64,000 nt of DNA from positions 1,530,978 to 1,594,977 of the forward strand of contig NZ_CP015193.1 of assembly GCF_002214605.1 (NCBI RefSeq), read 5' to 3'. The position numbers and the translations under genes were made by a program. Positions 1 through 11,484 of the stretch are shown here, piece by piece. The notes beneath the pieces are model-generated. The model was not told where the DNA came from, made no database searches, and was given only the letters and a program-made list of their open reading frames with translations. The stretch is from Thermococcus chitonophagus (GTDB lineage: Archaea; Methanobacteriota_B; Thermococci; Thermococcales; Thermococcaceae). Numbering within the stretch: the first letter of the stretch is position 1; each line of letters opens with the position of its first letter.

Positions 1-1153
1 TCACTTTAACAAGCAGTCGTTGCCTTGCATAATTCTCATCACCCTGGTGATATTTTCTGAGGGCGAACTTGACGTAAAATTCTCCTTCTCCCTTCTTTCT
101 AGTGTAGTGATTGCCGCTCTCATCGACGAACCTCATGACGTTTCCACAGTTTAAGCAGAAAGCCTGTTGTCTCCTTGACTCCATATTGCTCTTTGGAACT
201 TCAAAGACAACAGCCTCTTTACCATCAATCTTTCTAATCTTTGCATCAACTTCTCCTTTCTCGATCTTAGGTTTGAGCTTCTTGACTATTTCTTCATCTT
301 CAAAGACTATCTCTCCTTTTCTTGTGTCAACTTTGGCGTTTGAAACATCGCCCACTATCTGGTTTAAATCAACAACCTCAATCTCAATGCCATTCTCGGT
401 TCTCTTGGGCTTCATGTAAGCTAAGCGCTGATACTTCCCTTTGCTGTCTTTAACCCTTGCGAGCCACCAGTTACCCACTATTGGTGTCCACTTTCCACAA
501 TGGGGACATTTAACTTCCCAAGTGCCAATGTAAACAGCAACATCATCGTCATAAAGCTCTCTGATCTCTGGGTCGTTTTTAAGCTGCTCAGTAATCCAGT
601 TGCCCCACTTCGCAACATCATAAACTAAAGCGGGAACTTCAACACTTGTGATTATCTTCTTCTTTGCCTCTCGTGCGTAGCTGTCTAACCCTAAAGCTTC
701 AAGCTCCTTAACTGGAACTTTCACCTTCAGCCTTCCAAACTTCTTTGGATACTCAAGAACAGCCTTGAGGAAAACGTAAGCCGTTGGTAATAACTCAACA
801 GCGGTAACATCCAAACCCAAGCGAAGCCCTTCAAGCGGAATACTTCCAAAGCCAGCAAAAGGATCTAAAAGCTTTTTTCCTTCAAAATATTGCTTGTATT
901 TATCTGGAATTTGAGGATTAAAACGATGGGGAGTATTTTCATTAAGCCTTATCATCTTTTTAAATTCCTTAGCATCAACATTTTCTGGAAGCAATGCTCC
1001 AGCAATTACAGCTCTTGCTCCAATTAATGGTTTCCTTGTCCACCAGAAGACCATCTCCCAATAAGGTGGTCTCGCCGGACCCTTTTCTTTAGCACTTTTT
1101 TCATTAATTTCCCTTATGGGAAAGTTTGGGCTTTCAAGAAAAGTTCTTTTCAT
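1..1153 (-). CDS. DUF1156-family DNA methyltransferase (3' end outside window)
   Basis: The reading frame is open from an ATG at 1153 to the left edge, about 384 codons, so the C-terminus is missing. The N-terminus has the DUF1156 pattern (PPYWEMVFWWTRKP, residues 29-42) followed by an SAM-binding motif I, DPFAGFGS at 97-104. Two CxxC pairs (CPHC, CLNC) further on suggest a zinc ribbon insertion. Upstream of the ATG is GGTGGTGAAAAC, a good ribosome binding site. Proteins of this family are predicted adenine or cytosine DNA methylases, often found in defence islands with DUF499 ATPases; the partner genes would lie left of this window. Substrate site unknown. The family call is from motif recognition, not a search. 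Confidence 0.75.
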   Translation of the reverse strand, partial: MKRTFLESPNFPIREINEKSAKEKGPARPPYWEMVFWWTRKPLIGARAVIAGALLPENVDAKEFKKMIRLNENTPHRFNPQIPDKYKQYFEGKKLLDPFAGFGSIPLEGLRLGLDVTAVELLPTAYVFLKAVLEYPKKFGRLKVKVPVKELEALGLDSYAREAKKKIITSVEVPALVYDVAKWGNWITEQLKNDPEIRELYDDDVAVYIGTWEVKCPHCGKWTPIVGNWWLARVKDSKGKYQRLAYMKPKRTENGIEIEVVDLNQIVGDVSNAKVDTRKGEIVFEDEEIVKKLKPKIEKGEVDAKIRKIDGKEAVVFEVPKSNMESRRQQAFCLNCGNVMRFVDESGNHYTRKKGEGEFYVKFALRKYHQGDENYARQRLLVKV

Positions 1154-1292
1154 GTTTTCACCACCAGAAATAACTTATTGTTAGAAGAGTTTTTAACTTC
1201 TTTGATAGTTGTGGATAAAAATCGGCAAAAGAATAACCTCAAATTTACAATTGACGAAGGAAAAGCTTATTTGGAGAAATGCAGAGATAATA

Positions 1293-1619
1293 ATGAATGA
1301 GGTGTCCACAGGAATGGACCCTGCGAAGTTTTTTGCTCTTTTTGTCCCTACCATAATAGCGTTAATTGTTGCAGTAACTATTCCGAACCCAGAAAAAGTG
1401 GCTTATGATGCACTTACTCCAGCGATAAACGGGATTTATGAGCAAGCCCAAAGTCAGATTGGCGACCCTCAACTTGAGAGCTCTATGGAGTTAGTCAAGT
1501 TAAGCTGGAACTTACTCGGCTTTGGAATATGGCTTTCAGAAGTTCTTGCACCGTTTGCCATAATCTTCAGCTTCCTGACAAAAGCTGGGCTCCTCGATGG
1601 ATTTGACTTTAGCTTTTGA
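1293..1619 (+). CDS. small membrane protein of unknown function
   Basis: This small ORF starts at ATG 1293 (or at ATG 1314, which has GAGGTG just upstream); an in-frame TTG at 1209 gives a longer but less likely version. The product of about 108 residues has two clear hydrophobic segments: one near the N-terminus (FFALFVPTIIALIVAVTI) and one near the C-terminus (FGIWLSEVLAPFAIIFSFL). I recognise no family. It is divergent from the methyltransferase gene and may share its promoter region. Two-helix proteins of this size occur in archaeal plasmids and viruses, which fits the accessory setting but is not proof of origin. Confidence 0.5.
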   Translation: MNEVSTGMDPAKFFALFVPTIIALIVAVTIPNPEKVAYDALTPAINGIYEQAQSQIGDPQLESSMELVKLSWNLLGFGIWLSEVLAPFAIIFSFLTKAGLLDGFDFSF

Positions 1620-1884: not shown

Positions 1885-2574
1885 TCATTGTTTGACCCAG
1901 TCCAAAAAGAGTGTCTTGAAGCACTCATAAATACTCTGTACATCAATTAAAGCTAGATCAAAGTCTTTTTTGTGAAGTTCACCATCCAGTTCCTCAAGAA
2001 AGTCCAAAAATTTCTTCCGTAGTTCTATTCTGAAAATTTCGACACTATTTAGGTGTTTTGAGAAACACAAACCAAAAAGGTATTTTATTTTCTCATCAAA
2101 ATTTTGATGAAACATTGAAGGATGACTTTCTAGATATTTATCGGGAACATCATAGTAAATTTCGTAGATTTTCTTGCGGATACATAGTCTGCAGTAACTT
2201 CCAAATTTAAACAAGAGCGCAACTGGAAATGCATAAACACGAAATGTGCCCATCTCTGGAATGTGTGGTGTTACAACTTCTATATCAAAACACATATCCA
2301 ACTCATTGAAATCACTAAGGAAGCTAGTAGGCAGCCGATAAAACATCATTGGGGTGTCATATCCATAAAAACCGTTACCTTTTTTCAGAACTAACATTTT
2401 CCTGAGATAAAAATCTCTATCTCCAACCAGTAGAAACTTATCGGGATTCTCCAAAATTTGCTGAAGTCTCTCAGGTACATCACCTTCAAAAAAAGTCGTG
2501 TGTATCGTTATTTTTCCGTTGTTTGATAAATTAGCTTGTATTATCTTTATTTTTGGGACATGTGATAATTCCAT
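1885..2574 (-). CDS. hypothetical protein, 229 aa
   Basis: A complete ORF from ATG 2574 to a stop at 1885. No domain is recognised. The protein is soluble, rich in aromatic residues and Lys, with a CRLC pair in the middle (SYCRLCIRKK) and a helical C-terminal third. It is AT-rich like the nurA operon, from which it is divergently transcribed across a 223-bp gap. Its position beside the DNA-end-processing genes suggests it belongs to the same accessory region, but no function follows from that. Confidence 0.6.
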   Translation of the reverse strand: MELSHVPKIKIIQANLSNNGKITIHTTFFEGDVPERLQQILENPDKFLLVGDRDFYLRKMLVLKKGNGFYGYDTPMMFYRLPTSFLSDFNELDMCFDIEVVTPHIPEMGTFRVYAFPVALLFKFGSYCRLCIRKKIYEIYYDVPDKYLESHPSMFHQNFDEKIKYLFGLCFSKHLNSVEIFRIELRKKFLDFLEELDGELHKKDFDLALIDVQSIYECFKTLFLDWVKQ

Positions 2575-2757
2575 AGGTTGTCCCCAGTAAAATCCTTGGA
2601 TTTAGAAATTTTTAAAATTTTTGGCAATACTAAGATATTAGCTAAATTAAATCTTAATTATCTTAACAACACTTTTTCATAAATCTTTACATAAATTAAT
2701 TTTGAAGCATTAATTATCACTAACATGAGAATTTTACTATTAGTCGCAAAAGCGGAA

Positions 2758-2797
2758 GATTTATTTATCTAATAGGTATTAATTTTAGTGATGCACT
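2758..2797 (+). promoter_or_regulatory. promoter of the nurA-herA-mre11-rad50 operon
   Basis: A TATA-like TTTATTTA lies at 2760-2767, about 34 bases before the nurA ATG, and is preceded by a purine-rich BRE-like GCGGAAGA. GTGATG just upstream of the ATG can serve as ribosome binding site. No other promoter is seen before rad50 ends, so the four genes are probably one transcript. Confidence 0.5.
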
Positions 2798-4108
2798 ATG
2801 TCCAAGTTCTATGATCTTTTTGCTAAAGAGTTAAGATCAAAGAGAGATAAATGGAAGAAGAGATACCATTCACTTCCAAATACACTTGAAAAATTCCTAA
2901 GAGAAGAATTCAATAAATTCTGGAAACCTGTTAATCTAAAAGATTATGAAAGAAATCCCAAAGAGTTTAATATTCTCGCTGTTGATAGCAGTTATCAGGC
3001 AGAGTCCCTCAAAAATGGCGGGATATTCTATGCAGTTAGAGCCCTTGGGATATCTAAAGACAAAGAATATCGTGATTTAATAGTTGATTTCGACTATGCA
3101 GATGGCCCGGTTCACAATGTAACTCATTTTCTTCAGAGAAAAATGGAATATCTGGAGCTTAAAGTTGCTGCAGATGCAATTTCTGACGGCTTCAATGGGA
3201 CTATCTTAATTGATGGCTCCATCTACGGAAGAATATCCCATCTAATCGAAGAAAGCCCTATGAGCAACGATAGAGGCTTTTTCATCGAGCATTACAAAGA
3301 AGTCATGAGACTCTTTAAACTTGCCAAGGAAAATGAAGTGGTACTTGTCGGAATCAGCAAAGAAAGCAGAAGCCGCTTTTTCAGAGATTTTCTTGTTAAA
3401 AACTTAGTTTCTTTAGACGAAATTAGAGGCGATGTTTCACTTAACGAGGTTTTTCATTTGTTATCTCTGGCATTAGACCAGAAGAGAAAAGCAATTAAAA
3501 TGTTGGACTCTTTAAAGAGGCAGTACGAAAATATTGGATTACTGGATGAAGTCTTGAAAGAACTGCTAACTCCCAGACCAGATTACCAGCTAATTGATAA
3601 ATTTGCCCAACAGCCAGGTTACACGATTCCACTGTTACTGGGGCCTTCTGCGAGATGGCTCCGTGGTATTGAACAAATAGAAAAGGATCCAGAAGGATAC
3701 ATTGAAAGTCATTTTCCAACTCTGTTTTCAGATCCCAATTTTGTCAGTTATGCAAAAGTCATTCTAAAAAATATTCCTGATCTTCCTTCCATAATCTCAA
3801 TGCATGTACTACCGGATGTCAATGATTCTCCTCTCAGAATAGATATTCCGGCTTTCTGTTTGGGAGATGATGTTAAGTTAAAAGAAATTGGATGGCCAGA
3901 ACCATTTACTGGAACTCTTGATCAAATTTTTGAAATCATAGCTACTGGATATGGAGGGTTGGAATTCTACAATATCTGGCTTTGGAAAGTGGATAGAGAG
4001 GTTAAGTTTCATAGGCATGAGTTTGATGAGCTGTATTTCTCTAAGTTTAAAGAAGCTATTGAGGTGGAAATAAATGCCCGAGGTCACAGAAGAGTTAGGT
4101 TCCTTTGA
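2798..4108 (+). CDS. nurA: NurA 5'-3' nuclease
   Basis: 436 residues. NurA is the RNase-H-like nuclease that works inside the HerA hexamer to resect DNA ends with Mre11-Rad50. The conserved first catalytic Asp is in LAVDSS (D63), followed by the family pattern ILIDGSIYGR in the middle and LPDVNDSPLRIDIP towards the end. Length is normal for the family (P. furiosus NurA is about 450 residues). It is the first gene of the operon, and herA starts 35 bases before its stop. In the standard Thermococcales locus, as I recall it, the order is herA-mre11-rad50-nurA, so nurA in first place is unusual and suggests a different lineage of this cluster. Confidence 0.85.
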   Translation: MSKFYDLFAKELRSKRDKWKKRYHSLPNTLEKFLREEFNKFWKPVNLKDYERNPKEFNILAVDSSYQAESLKNGGIFYAVRALGISKDKEYRDLIVDFDYADGPVHNVTHFLQRKMEYLELKVAADAISDGFNGTILIDGSIYGRISHLIEESPMSNDRGFFIEHYKEVMRLFKLAKENEVVLVGISKESRSRFFRDFLVKNLVSLDEIRGDVSLNEVFHLLSLALDQKRKAIKMLDSLKRQYENIGLLDEVLKELLTPRPDYQLIDKFAQQPGYTIPLLLGPSARWLRGIEQIEKDPEGYIESHFPTLFSDPNFVSYAKVILKNIPDLPSIISMHVLPDVNDSPLRIDIPAFCLGDDVKLKEIGWPEPFTGTLDQIFEIIATGYGGLEFYNIWLWKVDREVKFHRHEFDELYFSKFKEAIEVEINARGHRRVRFL

Positions 4109-5678
4109 AAAGATTGGAGTTGTTACTGGGGAAAGCACCCATGTCGAGTTTTATTTTGCAGTTGAAGATGGGAAAATGCCACAAGTATGGGACTATGTGG
4201 TAGTTCCGTCAAATGAATTGATTGATGGAGAGGAAAAAAGAGTCTTGGTGTTAGGGCAGATAACTTCAATAATAGCATATTCTCCAGGATTGACAGAATA
4301 TGTGCCATATTCAGTGGCTGAAAAGCTTAAAGAGGCTGAAATAATAGAGCCAAGAAATCTTGCCAAAGTTAAAATTCTTGGATTTCTTCATAATGGAACT
4401 GTTCTAATGCCTCGGCGAACTATTTATCCCGGAACCTATGTGTATCTGGCTCCTGATGACATTTTAACTGAAGTTTATTCATATCCAGAAGAAGAGGGTC
4501 TTTACATAGGCAACTTGATAACAAGACCAAGCGTTAAAGTCAATCTCACGATTAGGGGATTTAGACGACATTTGGCTATCTTGGCACAAACAGGTGCGGG
4601 AAAAAGTTACACTGCCGGCGTATTGCTTGAAGAACTTTACAAAAAAGGAGCTACTGTCATTGTGTTAGATCCTCATGCAGATTATGTGTTTATCTCAAAA
4701 GATCCAGAAGGAAAGAAAAAAGTGCTAAAGAGGGTTAAGGTATTTAGAACCTCAGAAAGTACTGGAAGGTACACAAAAGAAGAAATTGGACACGTGAAAA
4801 CTTTTGAAATCAAGTTTGCAGACTTATCTCTTGAAGAAATCTTTACAATAGCTGGAATTAATGAAAAATGGACCAACATTATGAAGGCTATTGAAGATGC
4901 CTTGGAGAGATTAAAAAGCAATGAGAATAAAGATGACAGCAAGAATTACACGTTAAATGATTTGATTACAGCATTGCAGACTTCAGATAACAACAACGCC
5001 CTTCGTGCTCTCACGTACATAAAGAGACTCAAAAAACTCAAAGTATTTGGAGACTCAACTACTCCAATAGGAGAGTTCCTGCAGCCCCAAAGCATTGCAG
5101 TTATGGATCTCTCCGGATTAAACGATAATGTTGCGGATTACATAGCTTACAGGATACTCTCGGAGGCGTACAATCAAAGAGAAAATGGCAAATATGAGTA
5201 CCCAATCTTTATTTTAATTGAAGAGGCACATAGATTTATTCCTAAAAATCAGAGTACTCTATCCAAGAGAATCGTTAAGAAAATCGCAGCAGAGGGTAGA
5301 AAATTTGGAGTCTTCTTGATTTTAGTAACCCAGAGACCCCAAAAAATTGATAGCGATGTTCTGAGCCAATGTAACAGCCAGATAATCATGAGAATGACAA
5401 ACCCCGAAGATCAAAATGCTGTTAAAAAGAGCGCTGAACAGGTAAGCGAGGATCTTCTTAGAGACTTGCCAGGACTGAATGTTGGAGAAGCTATTATTGT
5501 TGGGGAAGTTACTAAGATGCCGGTTATGGTCAAGATTAGAAAACGCATGACCAAAGAAGGTGGAGCAGACATAGACATTGTTGGACTACTCAAAAAAGCC
5601 AGGGAAAAAGCAAAAGAGAATATTGATAAAAAGGTTGAGCAGCTTAAGAATGAAATAAAAAGCTTCTTAGAAGTTTAA
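4074..5678 (+). CDS. herA: HerA bipolar DNA helicase/translocase
   Basis: 534 residues. HerA is a hexameric FtsK/HerA-type ATPase that pumps duplex DNA into NurA during end resection. The N-terminal 150 residues form the HAS-barrel region; Walker A is QTGAGKS at 172-178; Walker B is FILIEEAH with the acidic pair at 383-384; an arginine-containing TQRPQKID motif follows. The ATG at 4074 lies inside nurA and has GAGGTGG 7-13 bases upstream, so start and translational coupling are clear. It is somewhat shorter than the P. furiosus protein (about 570). Confidence 0.88.
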   Translation: MPEVTEELGSFEKIGVVTGESTHVEFYFAVEDGKMPQVWDYVVVPSNELIDGEEKRVLVLGQITSIIAYSPGLTEYVPYSVAEKLKEAEIIEPRNLAKVKILGFLHNGTVLMPRRTIYPGTYVYLAPDDILTEVYSYPEEEGLYIGNLITRPSVKVNLTIRGFRRHLAILAQTGAGKSYTAGVLLEELYKKGATVIVLDPHADYVFISKDPEGKKKVLKRVKVFRTSESTGRYTKEEIGHVKTFEIKFADLSLEEIFTIAGINEKWTNIMKAIEDALERLKSNENKDDSKNYTLNDLITALQTSDNNNALRALTYIKRLKKLKVFGDSTTPIGEFLQPQSIAVMDLSGLNDNVADYIAYRILSEAYNQRENGKYEYPIFILIEEAHRFIPKNQSTLSKRIVKKIAAEGRKFGVFLILVTQRPQKIDSDVLSQCNSQIIMRMTNPEDQNAVKKSAEQVSEDLLRDLPGLNVGEAIIVGEVTKMPVMVKIRKRMTKEGGADIDIVGLLKKAREKAKENIDKKVEQLKNEIKSFLEV

Positions 5679-5689
5679 GAGGTGATAGT

Positions 5690-6832
5690 ATGCGTATTGC
5701 CCATATTTCTGACACTCATTTGGGATATCGGCAGTACAACTTAGATGAAAGAGAAAATGACATTTATGATGCTTTCAATGAGGCTGTTGATATCATGATT
5801 GAAGAAAGGGTCGATGTCGTTGTTCATGCTGGAGATTTCTTTGACACTCCGAGACCGCCAATTAAAGCCCTTTATGTGGCAAAGGAAGCAATCAAGCGAT
5901 TGCATGAAAATGGGATTAAGATTTTAACAGTACTTGGTGAACATGATACTCCAAAGAGGAGAGCAATGCCACCACATAAGCTTTTGGATATTCCTATCCT
6001 AGGAATTGGAGAGTTAAGTGTTGTGGAAGTCAACGGAGTTGGATTTTTTGGAATATCAAACATGAAAGGGAAAAGGGTCGACTTACTAAAACAAGAGCTT
6101 TCAAAAGTTGATGCTTTAGCAAATAGATATCCAAAGGCTGTTTTGATTGTCCATCAGGGCATAAAGAAATACTTACCCTTTGAAGGTGCATATGAGCTTG
6201 AGCTTGGGGATTTACCAAAGGAAATAGACTACTATGCGTTTGGACACATTCACAGGAGAACCTTTGAAAAGTTTGGCAGAGGATATTTAGCATATTCTGG
6301 CTCAATTGAAATACTGAGTCGCAGTGAAATAAATGATTGGAAAAGAGATGGAAAGGGCATCTACATTGTTGATCTCGAAGGGGACCTCCCAGAGGTACAT
6401 AAAATTTCCCTCCAGCAAATACGCCCTCAATTTGAACTTTCATATTCCGAGAGTGATGTTATTGAAGAATTAAAGGCTTTTCTCTACAATTTGCTTAAAA
6501 ATCCTCTAGATAAATCTCCCATCTTGAGGATAAATATCAGTAGAGAGGGTATCAGAAAACCAGAAATCCTTGAAAAGGTCCAATATTTGCTAAGAAAAAT
6601 GGTTCCAGAAAAAGTGTTAAGGTATGATGTCCATTTTGTTGGAAGTGATACTCCCATTACCATTACTGCCGAAGAGCTTGGCAAGATTGCAGATTTAGAG
6701 GAACTTTTCATAGAGTACTTTAGGGATGAAACCTTGGGTCATTTAGCATTCGAACTTTACAAATCCCTTCAATATGGAGACGTTGAGGGAGGAATAGAGA
6801 TTTGTAAGGAATACTTGGAGGGAAGGAAATGA
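5690..6832 (+). CDS. mre11: Mre11 nuclease (DNA double-strand break repair)
   Basis: 380 residues. Mn-dependent phosphoesterase that pairs with Rad50. Visible metal-site motifs: SDTHLG (D8, H10), HAGDFFD (D49), GEHD (H85), VHQGI (H155) and FGHIHR (H186, H188). The usual GNHD is GEHD here, so the metal-bridging Asn84 is replaced by Glu84. A shorter C-terminus than P. furiosus Mre11 (about 426 residues) still leaves the capping domain and a Rad50-binding helix. It starts 11 bases after herA with AGAGGTGATAGT upstream, and its stop overlaps the rad50 ATG (ATGA). Identity is certain; whether the Asn-to-Glu change alters exo- or endonuclease activity is open. Confidence 0.88.
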   Translation: MRIAHISDTHLGYRQYNLDERENDIYDAFNEAVDIMIEERVDVVVHAGDFFDTPRPPIKALYVAKEAIKRLHENGIKILTVLGEHDTPKRRAMPPHKLLDIPILGIGELSVVEVNGVGFFGISNMKGKRVDLLKQELSKVDALANRYPKAVLIVHQGIKKYLPFEGAYELELGDLPKEIDYYAFGHIHRRTFEKFGRGYLAYSGSIEILSRSEINDWKRDGKGIYIVDLEGDLPEVHKISLQQIRPQFELSYSESDVIEELKAFLYNLLKNPLDKSPILRINISREGIRKPEILEKVQYLLRKMVPEKVLRYDVHFVGSDTPITITAEELGKIADLEELFIEYFRDETLGHLAFELYKSLQYGDVEGGIEICKEYLEGRK

Positions 6833-9636
6833 TACTAAAGAGGATTACTATGAAGAATTTCCTCTCACATAAGGACACAAAAATCGATTTTCCTCTTGGT
6901 GTTACAGTCTTCATAGGGCCTAATGGCGCTGGAAAAACATCAATAATAGATGCTATTTTTGTAGCACTCTTTAATACACCGCCACGTGGAGATAAGTTTG
7001 ATGATATTATCTACAGGGGAGAAAGAGAAGCGAAAATAGAACTAGAATTTGAAGAAGGCGGAATCCCATACAAAATTGTTTGGAGAAGAAAAAAGGGAAG
7101 GAGTTCCCCAACTTATGAACTTTATCGGCTTGATAGGAACATGCTTATTGCACATGGGGTAAAAGCAGTTAAAAAAGAAGTTGAAAATATTATCGGTATC
7201 GAAAAAGACTCGGCTGTTAACTCAATACTCATAAGACAGGGGGAGATAACGTCTTTACTAGACCAAGCGCCAGCAAAAAGGAAAGAAATCATCGGAAAAC
7301 TGCTTGGGTTAGATCGACTCGAAACTGCTTGGAAAACTATGAATGAGGTAATAAACTATTTCAAAGAGGAACTTAGAGAATATGAGGAATATGAATTCGA
7401 GTATTCTTACAAAACTAAGGAACTCCAACAAAAAACTGAAGAACTTCAAAGGCTATCTCGTGAAATAGAAACTTTAAAGAAACAGATTGTTACTCTCGAA
7501 GAAAAGCTGGAGAATATGCAACAGATTAAAGATAGCCTAGAGAACAAGAAAAAGAGGTATGAAGAATTAACTAAAGATATTGTAATACTTCAGGTAAAGA
7601 TTAAACAAACTAAGGAGAAAGTTGAAAAACTTAAAAGTGAGCTTGCAGAAGCAGAAAAGGCTAAAGAACTAGCTGAAAAGCTTGAAAGTGAAGTTAAGAA
7701 ATTGAGTCTTCTTGAGCAATTAAAGGATATTTTAGCTAAACTTGATTCACTAAATCAACAAAAAGAAGCTTTAGAAAGAGAACTGGATAAAATAAATCGT
7801 CTAGAGCAGGAAATAAGAGATACAGAAGACAAATATCGCCAATATGTGGAGATTGAGGAAAAGATTAAAGAAATAGAAGATGAGGTTTCTATCTTACAGC
7901 CTAAACGTCAAGATAAAGTTCAGATTGAAGAAACCATAAAACGAGTGGAGGATCAGATTAAAGCCCTTAATGAAGAGTTTCAGCAAGTATTAACTGAACT
8001 AAATAAGTACAAGATAGAGCTTTCAGCAATACCAAAGGAATATGAAGCAAAAACTCCAGCAGAAATAGATAGTGAAATTGCTGGCGAAAAGGCCAAGATT
8101 GAACAATTGAAGAAAGAAATAGAACGTCAAATTAGAGAATTAGAAAAAGCTAAAAGTGCTAAAGAAGAAGCAGAAAAACTAAAGCCTTTAGTAGATTTAT
8201 TGGAAAAGCTTAAACAGCTTTGGGAAATTCGTTCTAAAATAGATTCCCTTTCAAAAGATTTAGAGCACTTAAACAGAATTTTACAAGATATCAATGAGAA
8301 AAAAAGCGAACTTGAAAAGAGTAGAGATGGATATGAGGAATACCTCTTGCTGGAAAAGGAAATCGAGAGCCTAGAGAAGCAGAAGTCTGAGCTATTGTCC
8401 TATCGTTCTGAAGTTCAGAAACTACAAGCTATGATAGATGAAAAGAAGAAACAGCTACAAATTCTTCAAGGAGACGCTAACAAATTGGAAGCTGAAATCA
8501 AAATGTACCTCAATGAAATCACTCCAGAAGCTAAACAACAGAAGATTACTGAAATTCAACAGCAAATTAAACAACTAAAAGGTGAATTATTGCAAAAAAG
8601 GAACAAAATTGCTGAATTTAAGAGCAGAATAAAGGAAATAGAGGAGTATCTAAACATTCTTGGAGATGCCAATGAATGTCCTGTATGTCATCAAAAGTTA
8701 ACCCCTGAACACCGCCAAAAAGTTAAGGATGAATTCTCAGCAGAAAAAGCTGAAAAAGAAAAAATGATTCAGCAACTAGAATCTGAAACACTAACATTGG
8801 AAGAAGAAATTGAAAAACTTGAAGACCTTTTGATTACAATTGAGAAGCTTGATGTTAAGAGATACTTGGAGTACCAAAAGAAGATTCAAGAGATATCAAC
8901 AGAACTCAAGAAGCTTGAGGAGAAACTTTCCCAAGCAGAGGAAAAAGTCAATATGCTCAAGCACCTTGAAGAAGTACTTCTGCAAAAACTTCAACGCAAA
9001 AAGGAAGTTGAACCTGATTATTGGGGTTATCTAAGTGCAGAAGAAGAACTAAAATCACTGTTGAAGAAGTATCCAGAAGAAAAAATAAAGGAACAATACA
9101 AGGGCATTGAGGAAGAGCTTGCAGAATATCATCAAAAGGAATCAGCACTTATTGAGGCCATAGGACAGTTGCCGGAGAACCTTGAAAGTGAGATTAAAGC
9201 TCTTGAAGAAAAGAAAGAGCAGTTTATTCAGTTAAAGACAAAGGCTCAGCGTATTCCAATTATTGAAGACGATATTTCTAAATTAAAACAAGAAATTCAC
9301 GAAATAGAAACTTGGAAAATTCCAATGTTATTAGCAATTAAGAAGTTACTTTTAGAAAAAGCACTAAGGGAGTTAAATGAAGACATATCTAGGCTTAATG
9401 AGAAACTCAAGTTGATTCTCAAAGATATCGAGCATCTCGAAGAGCTCGAAAGTCAATTGCAAGAACTCAAGAACCAGTTGGAAACTCTAAAAGAGGACTA
9501 TCAACGATACATAGCAGCTTCTAATGCTTTAAAGCAAGAACGTTCAAAGTCACTAGTCTTGGAAGAACTTGAGGAAATTCATAAAAAAATTTTAGATCTC
9601 ACAAAGGAGGAAGAAGCTTTAGTTTCTAATATTTGA
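6829..9636 (+). CDS. rad50: Rad50 ATPase, N-terminal 935 codons up to an in-frame TGA
   Basis: SMC-like ATPase partner of Mre11. Walker A is GPNGAGKTS (30-38), the Q-loop is in ILIRQGEI near residue 140, and the zinc-hook CPVC is at 617-620. The whole reading frame through to 10506 would be 1225 residues, with the hook almost exactly in the middle. Known archaeal Rad50s are about 850-890 residues; the extra length comes from a duplicated coiled-coil segment in each arm. The frame is interrupted by TGA at codon 936, before the signature motif and Walker B. If truncated here the protein lacks half of its ATPase head and cannot work alone. The next frame is in phase and intact, so this is a single gene with one nonsense codon, a sequence error, or a split protein. 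Confidence 0.85.
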   Translation: MILKRITMKNFLSHKDTKIDFPLGVTVFIGPNGAGKTSIIDAIFVALFNTPPRGDKFDDIIYRGEREAKIELEFEEGGIPYKIVWRRKKGRSSPTYELYRLDRNMLIAHGVKAVKKEVENIIGIEKDSAVNSILIRQGEITSLLDQAPAKRKEIIGKLLGLDRLETAWKTMNEVINYFKEELREYEEYEFEYSYKTKELQQKTEELQRLSREIETLKKQIVTLEEKLENMQQIKDSLENKKKRYEELTKDIVILQVKIKQTKEKVEKLKSELAEAEKAKELAEKLESEVKKLSLLEQLKDILAKLDSLNQQKEALERELDKINRLEQEIRDTEDKYRQYVEIEEKIKEIEDEVSILQPKRQDKVQIEETIKRVEDQIKALNEEFQQVLTELNKYKIELSAIPKEYEAKTPAEIDSEIAGEKAKIEQLKKEIERQIRELEKAKSAKEEAEKLKPLVDLLEKLKQLWEIRSKIDSLSKDLEHLNRILQDINEKKSELEKSRDGYEEYLLLEKEIESLEKQKSELLSYRSEVQKLQAMIDEKKKQLQILQGDANKLEAEIKMYLNEITPEAKQQKITEIQQQIKQLKGELLQKRNKIAEFKSRIKEIEEYLNILGDANECPVCHQKLTPEHRQKVKDEFSAEKAEKEKMIQQLESETLTLEEEIEKLEDLLITIEKLDVKRYLEYQKKIQEISTELKKLEEKLSQAEEKVNMLKHLEEVLLQKLQRKKEVEPDYWGYLSAEEELKSLLKKYPEEKIKEQYKGIEEELAEYHQKESALIEAIGQLPENLESEIKALEEKKEQFIQLKTKAQRIPIIEDDISKLKQEIHEIETWKIPMLLAIKKLLLEKALRELNEDISRLNEKLKLILKDIEHLEELESQLQELKNQLETLKEDYQRYIAASNALKQERSKSLVLEELEEIHKKILDLTKEEEALVSNI
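7648..8136 (+). repeat. Rad50 N-arm coiled-coil duplication, copy 1
   Basis: Residues about 274-436 of Rad50. The block beginning EAEKAKELAEKLES...LLEQLKDILAKLDSL and ending in YRQYVEIEEKIKEIEDE aligns with the following block. Anchors: LLEQLK (codon at 7708) matches LLEKLK (8197), offset 489 bases; YRQY (7834) matches YEEY (8332), offset 498 bases. Confidence 0.65.
8137..8630 (+). repeat. Rad50 N-arm coiled-coil duplication, copy 2
   Basis: Residues about 437-600, directly preceding the zinc hook. It begins ELEKAKSAKEEAEKLK and contains LLEKLKQLWEIRSKIDSL and YEEYLLLEKEIESLEKQ, which align with the preceding block at an offset of 163-166 residues. Boundaries are approximate because coiled-coil sequence is low in complexity. 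Confidence 0.65.
8845..9324 (+). repeat. Rad50 C-arm coiled-coil duplication, copy 1
   Basis: Residues about 673-832, directly after the hook. Contains KKLEEKL (8911), PDYWGYLSAEEELKSL (9013) and IGQLPENLESEIKAL (9160). All three recur in the next block at offsets of 480, 480 and 471 bases. Constant spacing of three separate motifs argues for true duplication and not chance coiled-coil similarity. Confidence 0.7.
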
Positions 9637-9795
9637 CAATTGCCCGAGAACATAGAGGGCGAAATTAAACGCTTAAAACAAGTGAAAGAGGCATACATTC
9701 GTGCTACTGAGAAGAGCAAAGACATAGATTCCATAAAAGAGGAATTGAAAAAAGAAGAATTGGAACTTGAATCATTAATGAAAGAACTTGACTCA
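9325..9795 (+). repeat. Rad50 C-arm coiled-coil duplication, copy 2 (carries the stop codon)
   Basis: Residues about 833-989. Contains SRLNEKL (9391), EDYQRYIAASNALK (9493) and, across the stop, I-stop-QLPENIEGEIKRL (9631 on). In copy 1 the aligned codon is GGA (9163-9165); here it is TGA (9634-9636). Confidence 0.7.
9634..9636 (+). other. in-frame TGA nonsense codon in rad50
   Basis: The codon triplets ATT TGA CAA TTG CCC GAG AAC align with ATA GGA CAG TTG CCG GAG AAC in the upstream repeat copy. A single G-to-T change in the first base of a glycine codon explains the stop. Reading frame and protein character are unchanged on both sides. Confidence 0.85.
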
Positions 9796-10506
9796 AAAAA
9801 CAAAGAGCTTAAAGACCTTGCATATTCTCAAGAAGAATTTGAAAAGATACAGAAAGAAGTTCAAAATCTTTCAGCAGAGGTTAGTAGATTAAAGGGTACA
9901 TTATCTGAGAAAATTCAACAAAAGGAGAAACTTGAAACGGAGATTAAAGAATTACTGCATGATATTACTGAGTTGGAGAAACAGCTTCAAAAAATTGAAA
10001 AAATCCGGAAGTTCATAGCGGATTTAGAGCGTATTAGGGGTGCATACCACAAAGATGGGGTTCAAAAGCTCCTCCGCAAAAAGATTGCTCCAGTAATATC
10101 TGAATTAGCCACAAATTACATTGAGAGTTTCAATATGGACATAACAGACATTTACCTTTCTGAGGACTTTGATATTTCCGTTACTAAAAACTCTGTAGAT
10201 GTTCCAATATCTCTCCTTAGTGGTGGTGAGAAAGTTGCTGTGGCTCTTTCGTTGAGATTAGCGATTGCGAGGGTTCTCGCAAGAAGGCTTTCAGTGGTAA
10301 TAATGGATGAACCAACAACGCATTTAGATGAAGAAAGAAGGAGAGATTTAGTAGAAATTCTCGGAAAGTTCTTTAAAGCTGAGAATACAGTGCCACAAAT
10401 AATTATTGTAACCCACCATAGAGAGCTTGAAGACGTGGCAGATACAGTGTACCTTGTCCAAAAGGTTGACGGAATTTCAAAAGTTATTGAAAGTTCTTCT
10501 TTGTAA
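9640..10506 (+). CDS. rad50: Rad50, C-terminal part after the TGA (signature motif and Walker B)
   Basis: In phase with the upstream Rad50 frame. As an independent ORF it would start at TTG 9640 and give 288 residues: a C-arm coiled coil, then the ATPase head with signature LLSGGEK (residues 1129-1135 of the joined protein), Walker B VVIMDEPTTHLD (D1160) and the H-loop VTHHRELEDVADTVYLV. All catalytic motifs are intact, so any decay is very recent. No ribosome binding site precedes TTG 9640 within 20 bases (the nearest, AAGGAGG at 9603, is too far), so separate translation is unlikely unless it restarts after termination. Confidence 0.8.
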   Translation: MPENIEGEIKRLKQVKEAYIRATEKSKDIDSIKEELKKEELELESLMKELDSKNKELKDLAYSQEEFEKIQKEVQNLSAEVSRLKGTLSEKIQQKEKLETEIKELLHDITELEKQLQKIEKIRKFIADLERIRGAYHKDGVQKLLRKKIAPVISELATNYIESFNMDITDIYLSEDFDISVTKNSVDVPISLLSGGEKVAVALSLRLAIARVLARRLSVVIMDEPTTHLDEERRRDLVEILGKFFKAENTVPQIIIVTHHRELEDVADTVYLVQKVDGISKVIESSSL

Positions 10507-10747
10507 TTTCTAAATTTTTAGGTTTCGCTCTGGATTTCAACATGAATTTTGTTCCGAGTCGTTAACAGCATAACTAAATTTTAAGTTAAATAAACTCCAG
10601 TTCCTTATCTAATGGGACAAATATGATTTGCCTCATCTTTAACTGTTACAGTCAAGTTGTGTTATGTAATTTTCTGCATGGTGATGAGTTTGTATTATTA
10701 GAAAATATTTTAAACATTAAAATTACATACTTTTTTGGTGATCTAAC

Positions 10748-11236
10748 ATGAAAAAAGATGAGACTAAGGTAATTAGACTAACAGAAGACGCATACAATGC
10801 TCTTAGTAGACTACGAAAGAAGATTGTCGAACATGGCCAGAGAAGTTACTCCTACTCGGACATAGTGCTTACTGCAACTCTTCTTCTTGACAATGCAGTT
10901 GAACGTAATATTGCAAATGTCATGGACATAGTAACCATAGCAAAAGGGTTACGTCTTCAGAAATTAAGGGGAGAACTCCCAAAGAGCACCGATGTTTCTG
11001 AAGAGCTTAAAAAACACTTTCCTAACAGTGTTGATCAATTCACAACCCCAGTCAGCAAAATCATCTCATCAATAATTAAGCAACTCATTGAAAATGGTTA
11101 TCCAGATGCTGCCAGTTATGTGTTATTTTTACACAAGGATAAGCTTTCACCAGAAGAATTTGTTCGACTGAGTGTCAAAACACTTGAAGCGCAAGTGCAA
11201 ATGAAGATACGTGAAAAAGAACAATCCAGAGAGTAA
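10748..11236 (+). CDS. ribbon-helix-helix-like protein of unknown function, 162 aa
   Basis: The N-terminus (KVIRLTEDAYNALSRLRKKI, then YSYSDIV) has the pattern of a ribbon-helix-helix DNA-binding domain as found in archaeal VapB-type antitoxins and DUF217-like proteins. The remaining 110 residues are helical and unrecognised. It starts at ATG 10748 with TTGGTGATCTAAC upstream and a TATA-like AAATATTTTAAA near 10702. It lies 241 bases after rad50 and shares its AT-rich composition, so it may regulate or accompany the accessory cluster. No toxin gene is adjacent, and the next gene has different character. Confidence 0.55.
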   Translation: MKKDETKVIRLTEDAYNALSRLRKKIVEHGQRSYSYSDIVLTATLLLDNAVERNIANVMDIVTIAKGLRLQKLRGELPKSTDVSEELKKHFPNSVDQFTTPVSKIISSIIKQLIENGYPDAASYVLFLHKDKLSPEEFVRLSVKTLEAQVQMKIREKEQSRE

Positions 11237-11418: not shown

Positions 11419-11484
11419 ACCGATGATGAGTGTCATCCCTGCTGATTCGGGGTCGATGATGAGGTAAAGTCCCCACCTGAGGTG
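11419..11484 (+). ncRNA. C/D-box sRNA
   Basis: All four boxes are present with normal spacing: C ATGATGA 11423-11429, D' CTGA 11442-11445, C' ATGATGA 11456-11462, D CTGA 11477-11480. Guides are GTGTCATCCCTG before D' and GGTAAAGTCCCCAC before D. Archaeal C/D sRNAs direct 2'-O-methylation of rRNA or tRNA at the base paired five positions before the box. Targets were not worked out. The D box is directly followed by the GAGGTG ribosome binding site of the next gene. Confidence 0.85.

What the first reader, a model, noticed from the sequence alone, without database searches (positions are those of the whole stretch)
2798..10506. A non-standard, probably second, nurA-herA-mre11-rad50 cluster
Order is nurA first, then herA-mre11-rad50 with overlaps at each junction except one. 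Known Thermococcales loci, as I recall, run herA-mre11-rad50-nurA with a roughly 880-residue Rad50 and 426-residue Mre11. Here all four proteins differ in length, the DNA is AT-rich, and flanks are orphan genes and a DUF1156 methylase. This fits a horizontally gained end-resection machine, perhaps for defence or for an integrated element.
Basis: partly seen in the sequence, partly recalled or inferred. Interest (0 to 1): 0.7.

Follow-up and report, generated by a model that had tools for sequence, protein, structure and literature searches.

The report
Second, mobile archaeal DNA-end nuclease cassette
This heat-loving archaeon has its normal set of four DNA-end-processing genes and also a second set, gained from other archaea and sitting among anti-virus genes; its Rad50 gene has swapped arms and is cut by a stop codon, so the extra set may be a defence weapon that is now partly broken here.

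Summary
Confirmed: window 2798-10506 encodes nurA-herA-mre11-rad50, and the same genome carries a normal Pyrococcus-type herA-mre11-rad50-nurA locus 400 kb away. The window copy fails every NCBI equivalog cut-off that the canonical HerA and NurA pass. It occurs in only 5 of 94 Thermococcaceae and 5 of 57 Archaeoglobales, on top of resident HerAs. In a HerA tree it joins Archaeoglobi, Methanoliparum, Methanophagales and Asgard sequences; in that wider family nurA-herA-mre11-rad50 is the normal order. The nearest copy, in another genus, is 92-97% identical in NurA, HerA and Mre11, while the two canonical HerAs are 64% identical: recent horizontal transfer.

Rad50 is interrupted by an in-frame TGA (9634-9636; 935 + 289 residues). 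Its heads are 93-96% identical to that relative, but the coiled coil between them was replaced by an unrelated, 1.6-fold longer one. Relatives also carry a variable gene between herA and mre11, which the window lacks; one has the N-terminal domain of a McrB.

The cassette lies beside a BREX-related system and McrBC, at a hotspot reused in two other genomes. Best reading: an accessory, defence-island end-processing nuclease, probably impaired here by the TGA. Location and transfer are shown; antiviral function is inferred.

The parts
2798..4108 (+). accessory nurA (436 aa): NurA-domain nuclease
   Evidence: Pfam NurA E 2.1e-12; 20.5 bits against NCBIfam NurA_Pyro cut-off 650; dN/dS 0.09 against G086
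4074..5678 (+). accessory herA (534 aa): hexameric DNA translocase
   Evidence: DUF87, HAS-barrel and HerA_C in Pfam; 237 bits against NCBIfam HerA cut-off 970, own canonical 1001; tree
5583..5690 (.). HerA tail and herA-mre11 junction: not homologous to G086, which has an extra 210-225 aa 'slot' gene here
   Evidence: DNA match to G086 ends at 5583 and resumes at 5690; slot gene at L064:13818-14495
5690..6832 (+). accessory mre11 (380 aa)
   Evidence: Metallophos E 3e-16; best solved relative M. jannaschii-type Mre11 3auz E 8e-62, P. furiosus 1ii7 only 5e-23
6829..9636 (+). rad50, N-terminal part (935 aa): Walker A head, ascending arm, zinc hook, most of the descending arm; ends at in-frame TGA 9634-9636
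   Evidence: motifs GPNGAGKT at 30 and CPVC at 617
7361..10009 (+). replaced Rad50 coiled coil (arms 426 and 419 aa, against 265 and 227 in G086)
   Evidence: no DNA match to G086 inside, 95% before and 89% after; identity profile; arm lengths and heptad-shuffle z-scores
9637..10506 (+). rad50, C-terminal part in the same frame (289 codons): rest of coil, signature LSGGEK, Walker B head
   Evidence: dN/dS 0.13 over the head against G086
2..1153 (-). N-terminal part of a DUF1156 N6-type DNA methylase (1053 aa, start codon at 1151-1153, continues left of the window) of a DUF499-centred BREX-related system
   Evidence: PF06634 and PADLOC MTase_II 1178 bits (L008); match of the window to the methylase
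1885..2574 (-). orphan gene (229 aa), no family found
10748..11236 (+). dn162: small gene found at this spot also in G078 and G067
   Evidence: 30% identity in both, same order next to dn160
11419..11482 (+). sR55 C/D box RNA: right boundary of the variable region
   Evidence: Rfam RF01307 E 1e-21; homology with four same-genus genomes (G010, G006, G004, G007) starts at or near here

Best explanation
An accessory NurA-HerA-Mre11-Rad50 cassette, horizontally acquired from an Archaeoglobi-like source and resident in a defence island. Shown: second set, foreign origin, island location, mosaic structure, interrupted rad50. Inferred mechanism: Mre11-Rad50 senses, tethers and nicks DNA ends; the HerA hexamer then pumps the duplex into the NurA dimer, which destroys both strands. 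The target would be linear or cleaved invader DNA, including fragments made by the neighbouring restriction systems (McrBC, BREX-related), while the canonical set keeps the repair work. In this genome the TGA separates the two Rad50 head halves, so the Mre11-Rad50 arm works only if the C-terminal piece is translated separately (TTG one codon after the stop) and reassembles; HerA-NurA could still act alone.
For: Second copy. Patchy: HerA 3 of 94 and Rad50 5 of 94 Thermococcaceae, 5 of 57 Archaeoglobales, which also carry other HerAs. Foreign: tree, NCBIfam cut-offs failed, 92-97% identity to G086 against 64% for canonical HerA. Defence context: own island with BREX-related trio and McrBC, DUF1156 and DUF499 genes next to the cassette in G086 and the whole trio in G067, type I-B cas5 and cas7 in G046, McrBC in G109. 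DUF499 of this high-scoring type is in only 14 of 94 genomes, so 3 of 5 cassettes lying within about 10 kb of one is far above chance. Purifying selection on all parts, dN/dS 0.06-0.13. For T. kodakarensis HerA-NurA the authors doubt a resection role and propose degradation of viral dsDNA (PMC12977600).
Against: No functional data. G078 and G158 show no recognised defence genes next to the cassette. In Bathyarchaeia, Methanophagales and Methanoliparum members this family is the only HerA found at the threshold used, so the enzymes themselves are not dedicated to defence. Islands collect passengers. The interrupted rad50 argues that the full complex may be inactive in this strain.
Confidence: 0.6

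Rival explanations
1. A redundant repair set: horizontally gained duplicate of the end-resection machinery that simply adds repair capacity or is neutral cargo in a hotspot.
For: Family is the only HerA found in several archaeal lineages; hotspot also takes up unrelated metabolic genes in G010; G078 copy has no recognised defence neighbours.
Against: Most cassettes with enough flanking sequence lie beside defence genes; the hosts already have a resident copy; rare and patchy rather than fixed.
Confidence: 0.28
2. A decaying remnant: the cassette is a pseudogene cluster in this strain because rad50 has a nonsense codon (GGA to TGA suggested by the neighbouring repeat GQLPEN) and the herA-mre11 slot gene is gone. 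(This concerns its present state and can be true together with the defence or the repair reading.)
For: In-frame TGA; G086, G078 and G046 Rad50 frames are intact; slot gene missing against the two nearest relatives.
Against: No other disruption in 7.7 kb; selection on both Rad50 heads still strong (dN/dS 0.07 and 0.13); the stop may be recent or a sequencing error; some relatives lack a slot gene and keep their frames.
Confidence: 0.35
3. A naturally split Rad50: the TGA is used as a real gene boundary with re-initiation at TTG 9640, giving two chains that assemble.
For: TTG lies one codon after the stop; separately made Rad50 head halves are known to assemble in the P. furiosus crystal work (own knowledge; chains 1f2t_B and 1ii8_B seen).
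Against: No ribosome-binding site at usable distance before TTG 9640 (AAGGAGG lies about 30 nt upstream); no relative shows the same split; one substitution explains it.
Confidence: 0.1
4. The vertical Thermococcales locus in rearranged form.
For: Same four gene families.
Against: Canonical locus present as well; tree and cut-offs.
Confidence: 0.01

Closest known systems
Canonical Thermococcales herA-mre11-rad50-nurA locus (described by Constantinesco et al. 2004, cited in PMC3396285)
   Same: Same four gene families in one tight cluster.
   Different: Different order, low identity (HerA about 30%, Mre11 37% over its nuclease part), fails the Pyrococcus equivalog cut-offs, accessory and patchy, AT-rich, longer Rad50 coil, in a defence island.
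nurA-herA-mre11-rad50 clusters of Archaeoglobi, Bathyarchaeia, Asgard, Methanophagales
   Same: Same order and family (HerA 41-61% identity in the archaeal loci); window copy nests among them.
   Different: There sometimes the only copy; here an addition beside a resident set, with a mosaic, interrupted Rad50.
CRISPR-associated nurA-csm6-herA of Pyrobaculum (PMC3396285)
   Same: Accessory NurA-HerA paralogue next to defence genes.
   Different: Includes Csm6 (a CARF protein) and is described without mre11-rad50; the window has no CARF gene, though Archaeoglobi relatives do.
HerA-Sir2 and HerA-DUF4297 anti-phage systems (cited in PMC12977600)
   Same: HerA hexamer coupled to a nuclease or effector.
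   Different: Partner here is NurA with Mre11-Rad50; HerA scores far below the anti-phage HerA cut-offs (144 and 106 against 850 and 800 bits).
DUF499-centred Type-1 BREX-related system (PMC12839542)
   Same: It is the neighbour: DUF499 ATPase, DUF1156 methylase, helicase.
   Different: NurA, HerA, Mre11 and Rad50 are not among its described core parts; adjacency only.

Membership tests
Archaeal NurA-HerA-Mre11-Rad50 end-processing cluster | All four genes adjacent with recognisable domains | tested here: met
Archaeal NurA-HerA-Mre11-Rad50 end-processing cluster | Rad50 with both ATPase halves and zinc hook in one intact frame | tested here: not met
   Motifs present but in-frame TGA at 9634-9636 separates the halves
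Canonical Pyrococcus/Thermococcales locus | Proteins above NCBIfam equivalog cut-offs | tested here: not met
   HerA 237 of 970, NurA_Pyro 20.5 of 650, Mre11_Pyroc 112.5 of 600; own canonical HerA 1001 and NurA 670.5 pass
Canonical Pyrococcus/Thermococcales locus | Order herA-mre11-rad50-nurA and grouping with vertical orthologues | tested here: not met
Archaeoglobi/Bathyarchaeia/Asgard-type nurA-herA-mre11-rad50 family | Order and tree position | tested here: met
   (SH-aLRT 100 for the 15-row set; quick tree, no bootstrap)
CARF/CRISPR-linked NurA-HerA | CARF gene in the cluster | tested here: not met
   None next to the window, G086 or G078 copies; present in G094, G109, G096. That CARF family also occurs in many Archaeoglobales without this cassette
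HerA anti-phage families (NF042943, NF042944) | Score above curated cut-off | tested here: not met
   106 of 800 and 144 of 850 bits
Anti-phage defence system | Protection phenotype | not testable with these tools
   Only genomic context available
Lamassu (LmuB) | LmuA and LmuC partners | tested here: inconclusive
   Rad50 parts hit LmuB models (best 2e-27) as generic Rad50/SMC relatives; no LmuA or LmuC hit among the nine neighbouring window proteins scanned

The most novel reading that the evidence does not exclude
The cassette is a modular antiviral machine of hyperthermophilic archaea: a conserved NurA-HerA-Mre11-Rad50 engine with a variable 'slot' gene between herA and mre11 that aims it. 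In one Archaeoglobales genome the slot protein has the N-terminal domain of a McrB (in studied McrBs the part that reads DNA modification), in others a different 210-225 aa protein or none, and in three genomes a CARF regulator sits next to nurA. Rad50 arms are exchanged between alleles by recombination in the conserved heads.
Probability: 0.25. Interest if true: 0.8.

Novelty: new variant of a known kind. Interest (0 to 1): 0.55.

Why it matters
Whether archaeal HerA-NurA and Mre11-Rad50 serve repair or defence is open; a 2026 study of the Thermococcus kodakarensis enzyme doubts the resection role and suggests defence (PMC12977600). A naturally duplicated, horizontally moving, defence-island copy beside an intact housekeeping copy would let the two roles be separated genetically. 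The Rad50 coil exchange, with heads kept and arms replaced by a 1.6-fold longer symmetrical pair, is a natural domain swap that tests what arm length does. The variable herA-mre11 slot points to possible targeting subunits.

Tried and rejected
Viral origin: HerA and Mre11 scans of IMG/VR gave no relative. tRNA-linked insertion: no tRNA in the own island stretches scanned. Internal duplication as source of the long coil: no self-match under BLAST; the two arms are equally long, so one-sided repeat growth is unlikely. CARF as an exclusive partner: rejected, because close CARF relatives are common in Archaeoglobales that lack the cassette. A common C-terminal domain linking the McrB-type slot protein of G094 to the slot family of G086/G078/G096: only weak (hhalign probability 27%, E 7e-4); the L009 slot gene is unrelated. 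The slot gene of G096 first looked broken by stops; all interior stops in that genome's cassette are TAG and the checked ends are TGA, so it is probably intact under TAG recoding. The first HerA search of the family used E 1e-60 and missed two partial-contig cases, later found by Rad50. One Pfam call failed on wrong coordinates and was not repeated, so the integrase calls rest on sequence appearance.
Full report
OBSERVATION. The four genes are present and form one tight + strand cluster: nurA 2798-4108, herA 4074-5678 (35 nt overlap), mre11 5690-6832 (11 nt gap), rad50 from 6829 (4 nt overlap). Pfam confirms NurA, HerA (DUF87, HAS-barrel, HerA C-terminal), Mre11 phosphoesterase and Rad50 with zinc hook. 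The cassette has 36.5% GC against 45.6% for the window right of 11419. The codon sits in the sequence NI*QLPEN; an earlier stretch of the same protein reads AIGQLPEN, which suggests a one-base change from GGA (inference).

SECOND COPY. The genome (1.96 Mb, one contig) also holds herA-mre11-rad50-nurA at G000:C1:1130093-1136980, with proteins of 549, about 418, 881 and 450 residues. That HerA and NurA pass the NCBIfam equivalog cut-offs (1001 of 970; 670.5 of 650); the window HerA, NurA and Mre11 fail theirs by wide margins (237 of 970; 20.5 of 650; 112.5 of 600). By sequence the accessory Mre11 is nearest, among solved structures, to 3auz (E 8e-62) and the accessory Rad50 head to 5f3w/3aux (E 2e-33), the Methanocaldococcus jannaschii-type entries (organism from own knowledge), and much less to P. 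furiosus.

DISTRIBUTION AND TRANSFER. HerA of this type is in 3 of 94 Thermococcaceae and its Rad50 C-terminal half in 5 of 94, spread over 4 of 6 genera. In Archaeoglobales it is in 5 of 57 genomes (55-59% identity), which also show further HerAs at lower identity. In Bathyarchaeia, Methanophagales and Methanoliparum members it was the only HerA found. Across the archaeal loci among 53 related stretches from genome contigs, nurA-herA-mre11-rad50 is the usual order. The HerA tree (62 rows, SH-aLRT only) puts the window copy with G086, G078 and an Archaeoglobi MAG, inside a fully supported set that also holds Archaeoglobales, Methanoliparum, Methanophagales and two Asgard sequences, far from canonical Thermococcales HerA. 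G086, of another genus, is 97% (NurA), 92% (HerA) and 96% (Mre11) identical, whereas the two canonical HerAs are 64% identical. This is horizontal transfer. dN/dS between window and G086 is 0.06-0.13 for every part, both Rad50 heads included, so the set was under selection as functional protein until recently.

MOSAIC STRUCTURE. Window and G086 DNA match at 95% over 2712-5583 and 5690-7361 and at 89% over 10009-10635, with nothing between. In protein terms the Rad50 heads are 93-96% identical while the coil is barely alignable; G086 and G078 are about 70% alike over the whole length. The window arms are 426 and 419 residues, against 265 and 227 in G086 and about 257 in Archaeoglobales. The window coil is only remotely related to all others, least weakly to Archaeoglobales coils (heptad-shuffle z 9-16). 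Equal arm lengths argue that a full 1225-residue Rad50 once worked. Together with the differing HerA tail, at least two segments were exchanged.

THE SLOT. Between herA and mre11, G086 and G078 carry a 210-225 residue gene (44% identical to each other), and G096 a homologue with TAG codons in frame. G094 has at the same place a 440-residue gene whose first 173 residues are 42% identical over 169 residues to the N-terminal region of a McrB encoded near the cassette of G109; that protein's AAA part matches solved McrB structures. L009 has a third, unrelated gene. The window, G109, L011 and L013 have none. In G094 and G109 a CARF-HTH gene (PADLOC CARF3, E 1e-110 or better) lies directly upstream of nurA, and in G096 divergently beside it; the same CARF family is common in Archaeoglobales without the cassette, so this link is suggestive only.

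GENOMIC CONTEXT. Left of the cassette the own genome has a DUF1156 methylase, a nucleotidyltransferase-like gene with a regulator, a DUF499 ATPase, an SNF2/NOV_C helicase, and further out McrB and McrC. Methylase, DUF499 and helicase match the Type-1 BREX-related system of PMC12839542. The methylase and DUF499 genes stand next to the cassette in G086 (88 and 98% identical) and the whole trio, more diverged, in G067. G046 has type I-B cas7 and cas5 beside its rad50; G109 has McrBC. High-scoring DUF499 hits occur in 14 of 94 Thermococcaceae, one locus each. If placed at random, a cassette would lie within 10 kb of one with a chance of about 0.0015 (14/94 times 20 kb in 2 Mb), so 3 of 5 is not chance (own calculation; window and G086 are not independent, and two of four still gives about 1e-5). 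The right boundary is the sR55 RNA at 11419, where homology with same-genus genomes resumes or begins close by. The cassettes of G078 and G067 are next to the same small genes dn162 and dn160; G006 has only about 0.8 kb between dn160 and the next shared gene, and G010 has a 10-kb metabolic insert. This is a reused hotspot.

HOW IT PROBABLY WORKS. Established for the families: Mre11-Rad50 binds and nicks ends; HerA-NurA is an ATP-driven translocase-nuclease. For T. kodakarensis the authors of PMC12977600 argue against a resection role and for degradation of foreign duplex DNA. From the island location I infer that this accessory set destroys linear or restricted invader DNA, downstream of the neighbouring systems. 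Shown steps: gene content, motifs, foreign origin, location, selection. Inferred: substrate, protection, cooperation with neighbours, aiming by slot proteins. In this strain the Rad50 stop probably disables or splits the Mre11-Rad50 part; the HerA and NurA frames are intact.

LIMITS. No function was tested. The tree lacks bootstraps. Cassettes in G046, G067, G095, G097 and G158 lie on short or truncated contigs. 

Noticed in passing
L012 / G096:C13 (JdFR-19 MAG), cassette region: Four in-frame interior stops in nurA, the slot gene (two) and rad50 are all TAG, while the checked gene ends are TGA; an Mre11 elsewhere in that genome also shows an inner TAG. This looks like a TAG-recoded (pyrrolysine-type) genetic code.
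   Followed up: partly
L094:16659-19994, L008:987-13131 (genome 1515659-1532130): Large defence island left of the window: McrB, McrC, SNF2-NOV_C helicase, DUF499 ATPase, nucleotidyltransferase-like gene plus regulator (toxin-antitoxin-like), DUF1156 methylase.
   Followed up: partly
L094:11338-12703: Two overlapping frames (202 and 256 aa) that read like one tyrosine recombinase broken by a frameshift, near the left end of the island; not checked against a family library.
   Followed up: no
L064:18757-19863: Integrase-like gene just downstream of the accessory rad50 in G086, perhaps the mobiliser of the block; called by eye only.
   Followed up: no
window 10748-11236 and dn162 homologues in L066, L138: Small gene of unknown family (no Pfam hit), about 30% conserved, next to dn160 at the hotspot in three genomes that carry the cassette and not found by DNA in same-genus genomes without it.
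   Followed up: partly
L140:16294-17832, L133:5661-7190, L139:8609-10123: A 510-residue metallo-beta-lactamase-fold protein (62-64% identical) accompanies the Archaeoglobi-type cassette in three genomes.
   Followed up: no
window 1209-1619 and L064:9421-9792: Small protein with hydrophobic stretches (85% identical in G086) between methylase and nurA, a possible further part of the moved block.
   Followed up: no
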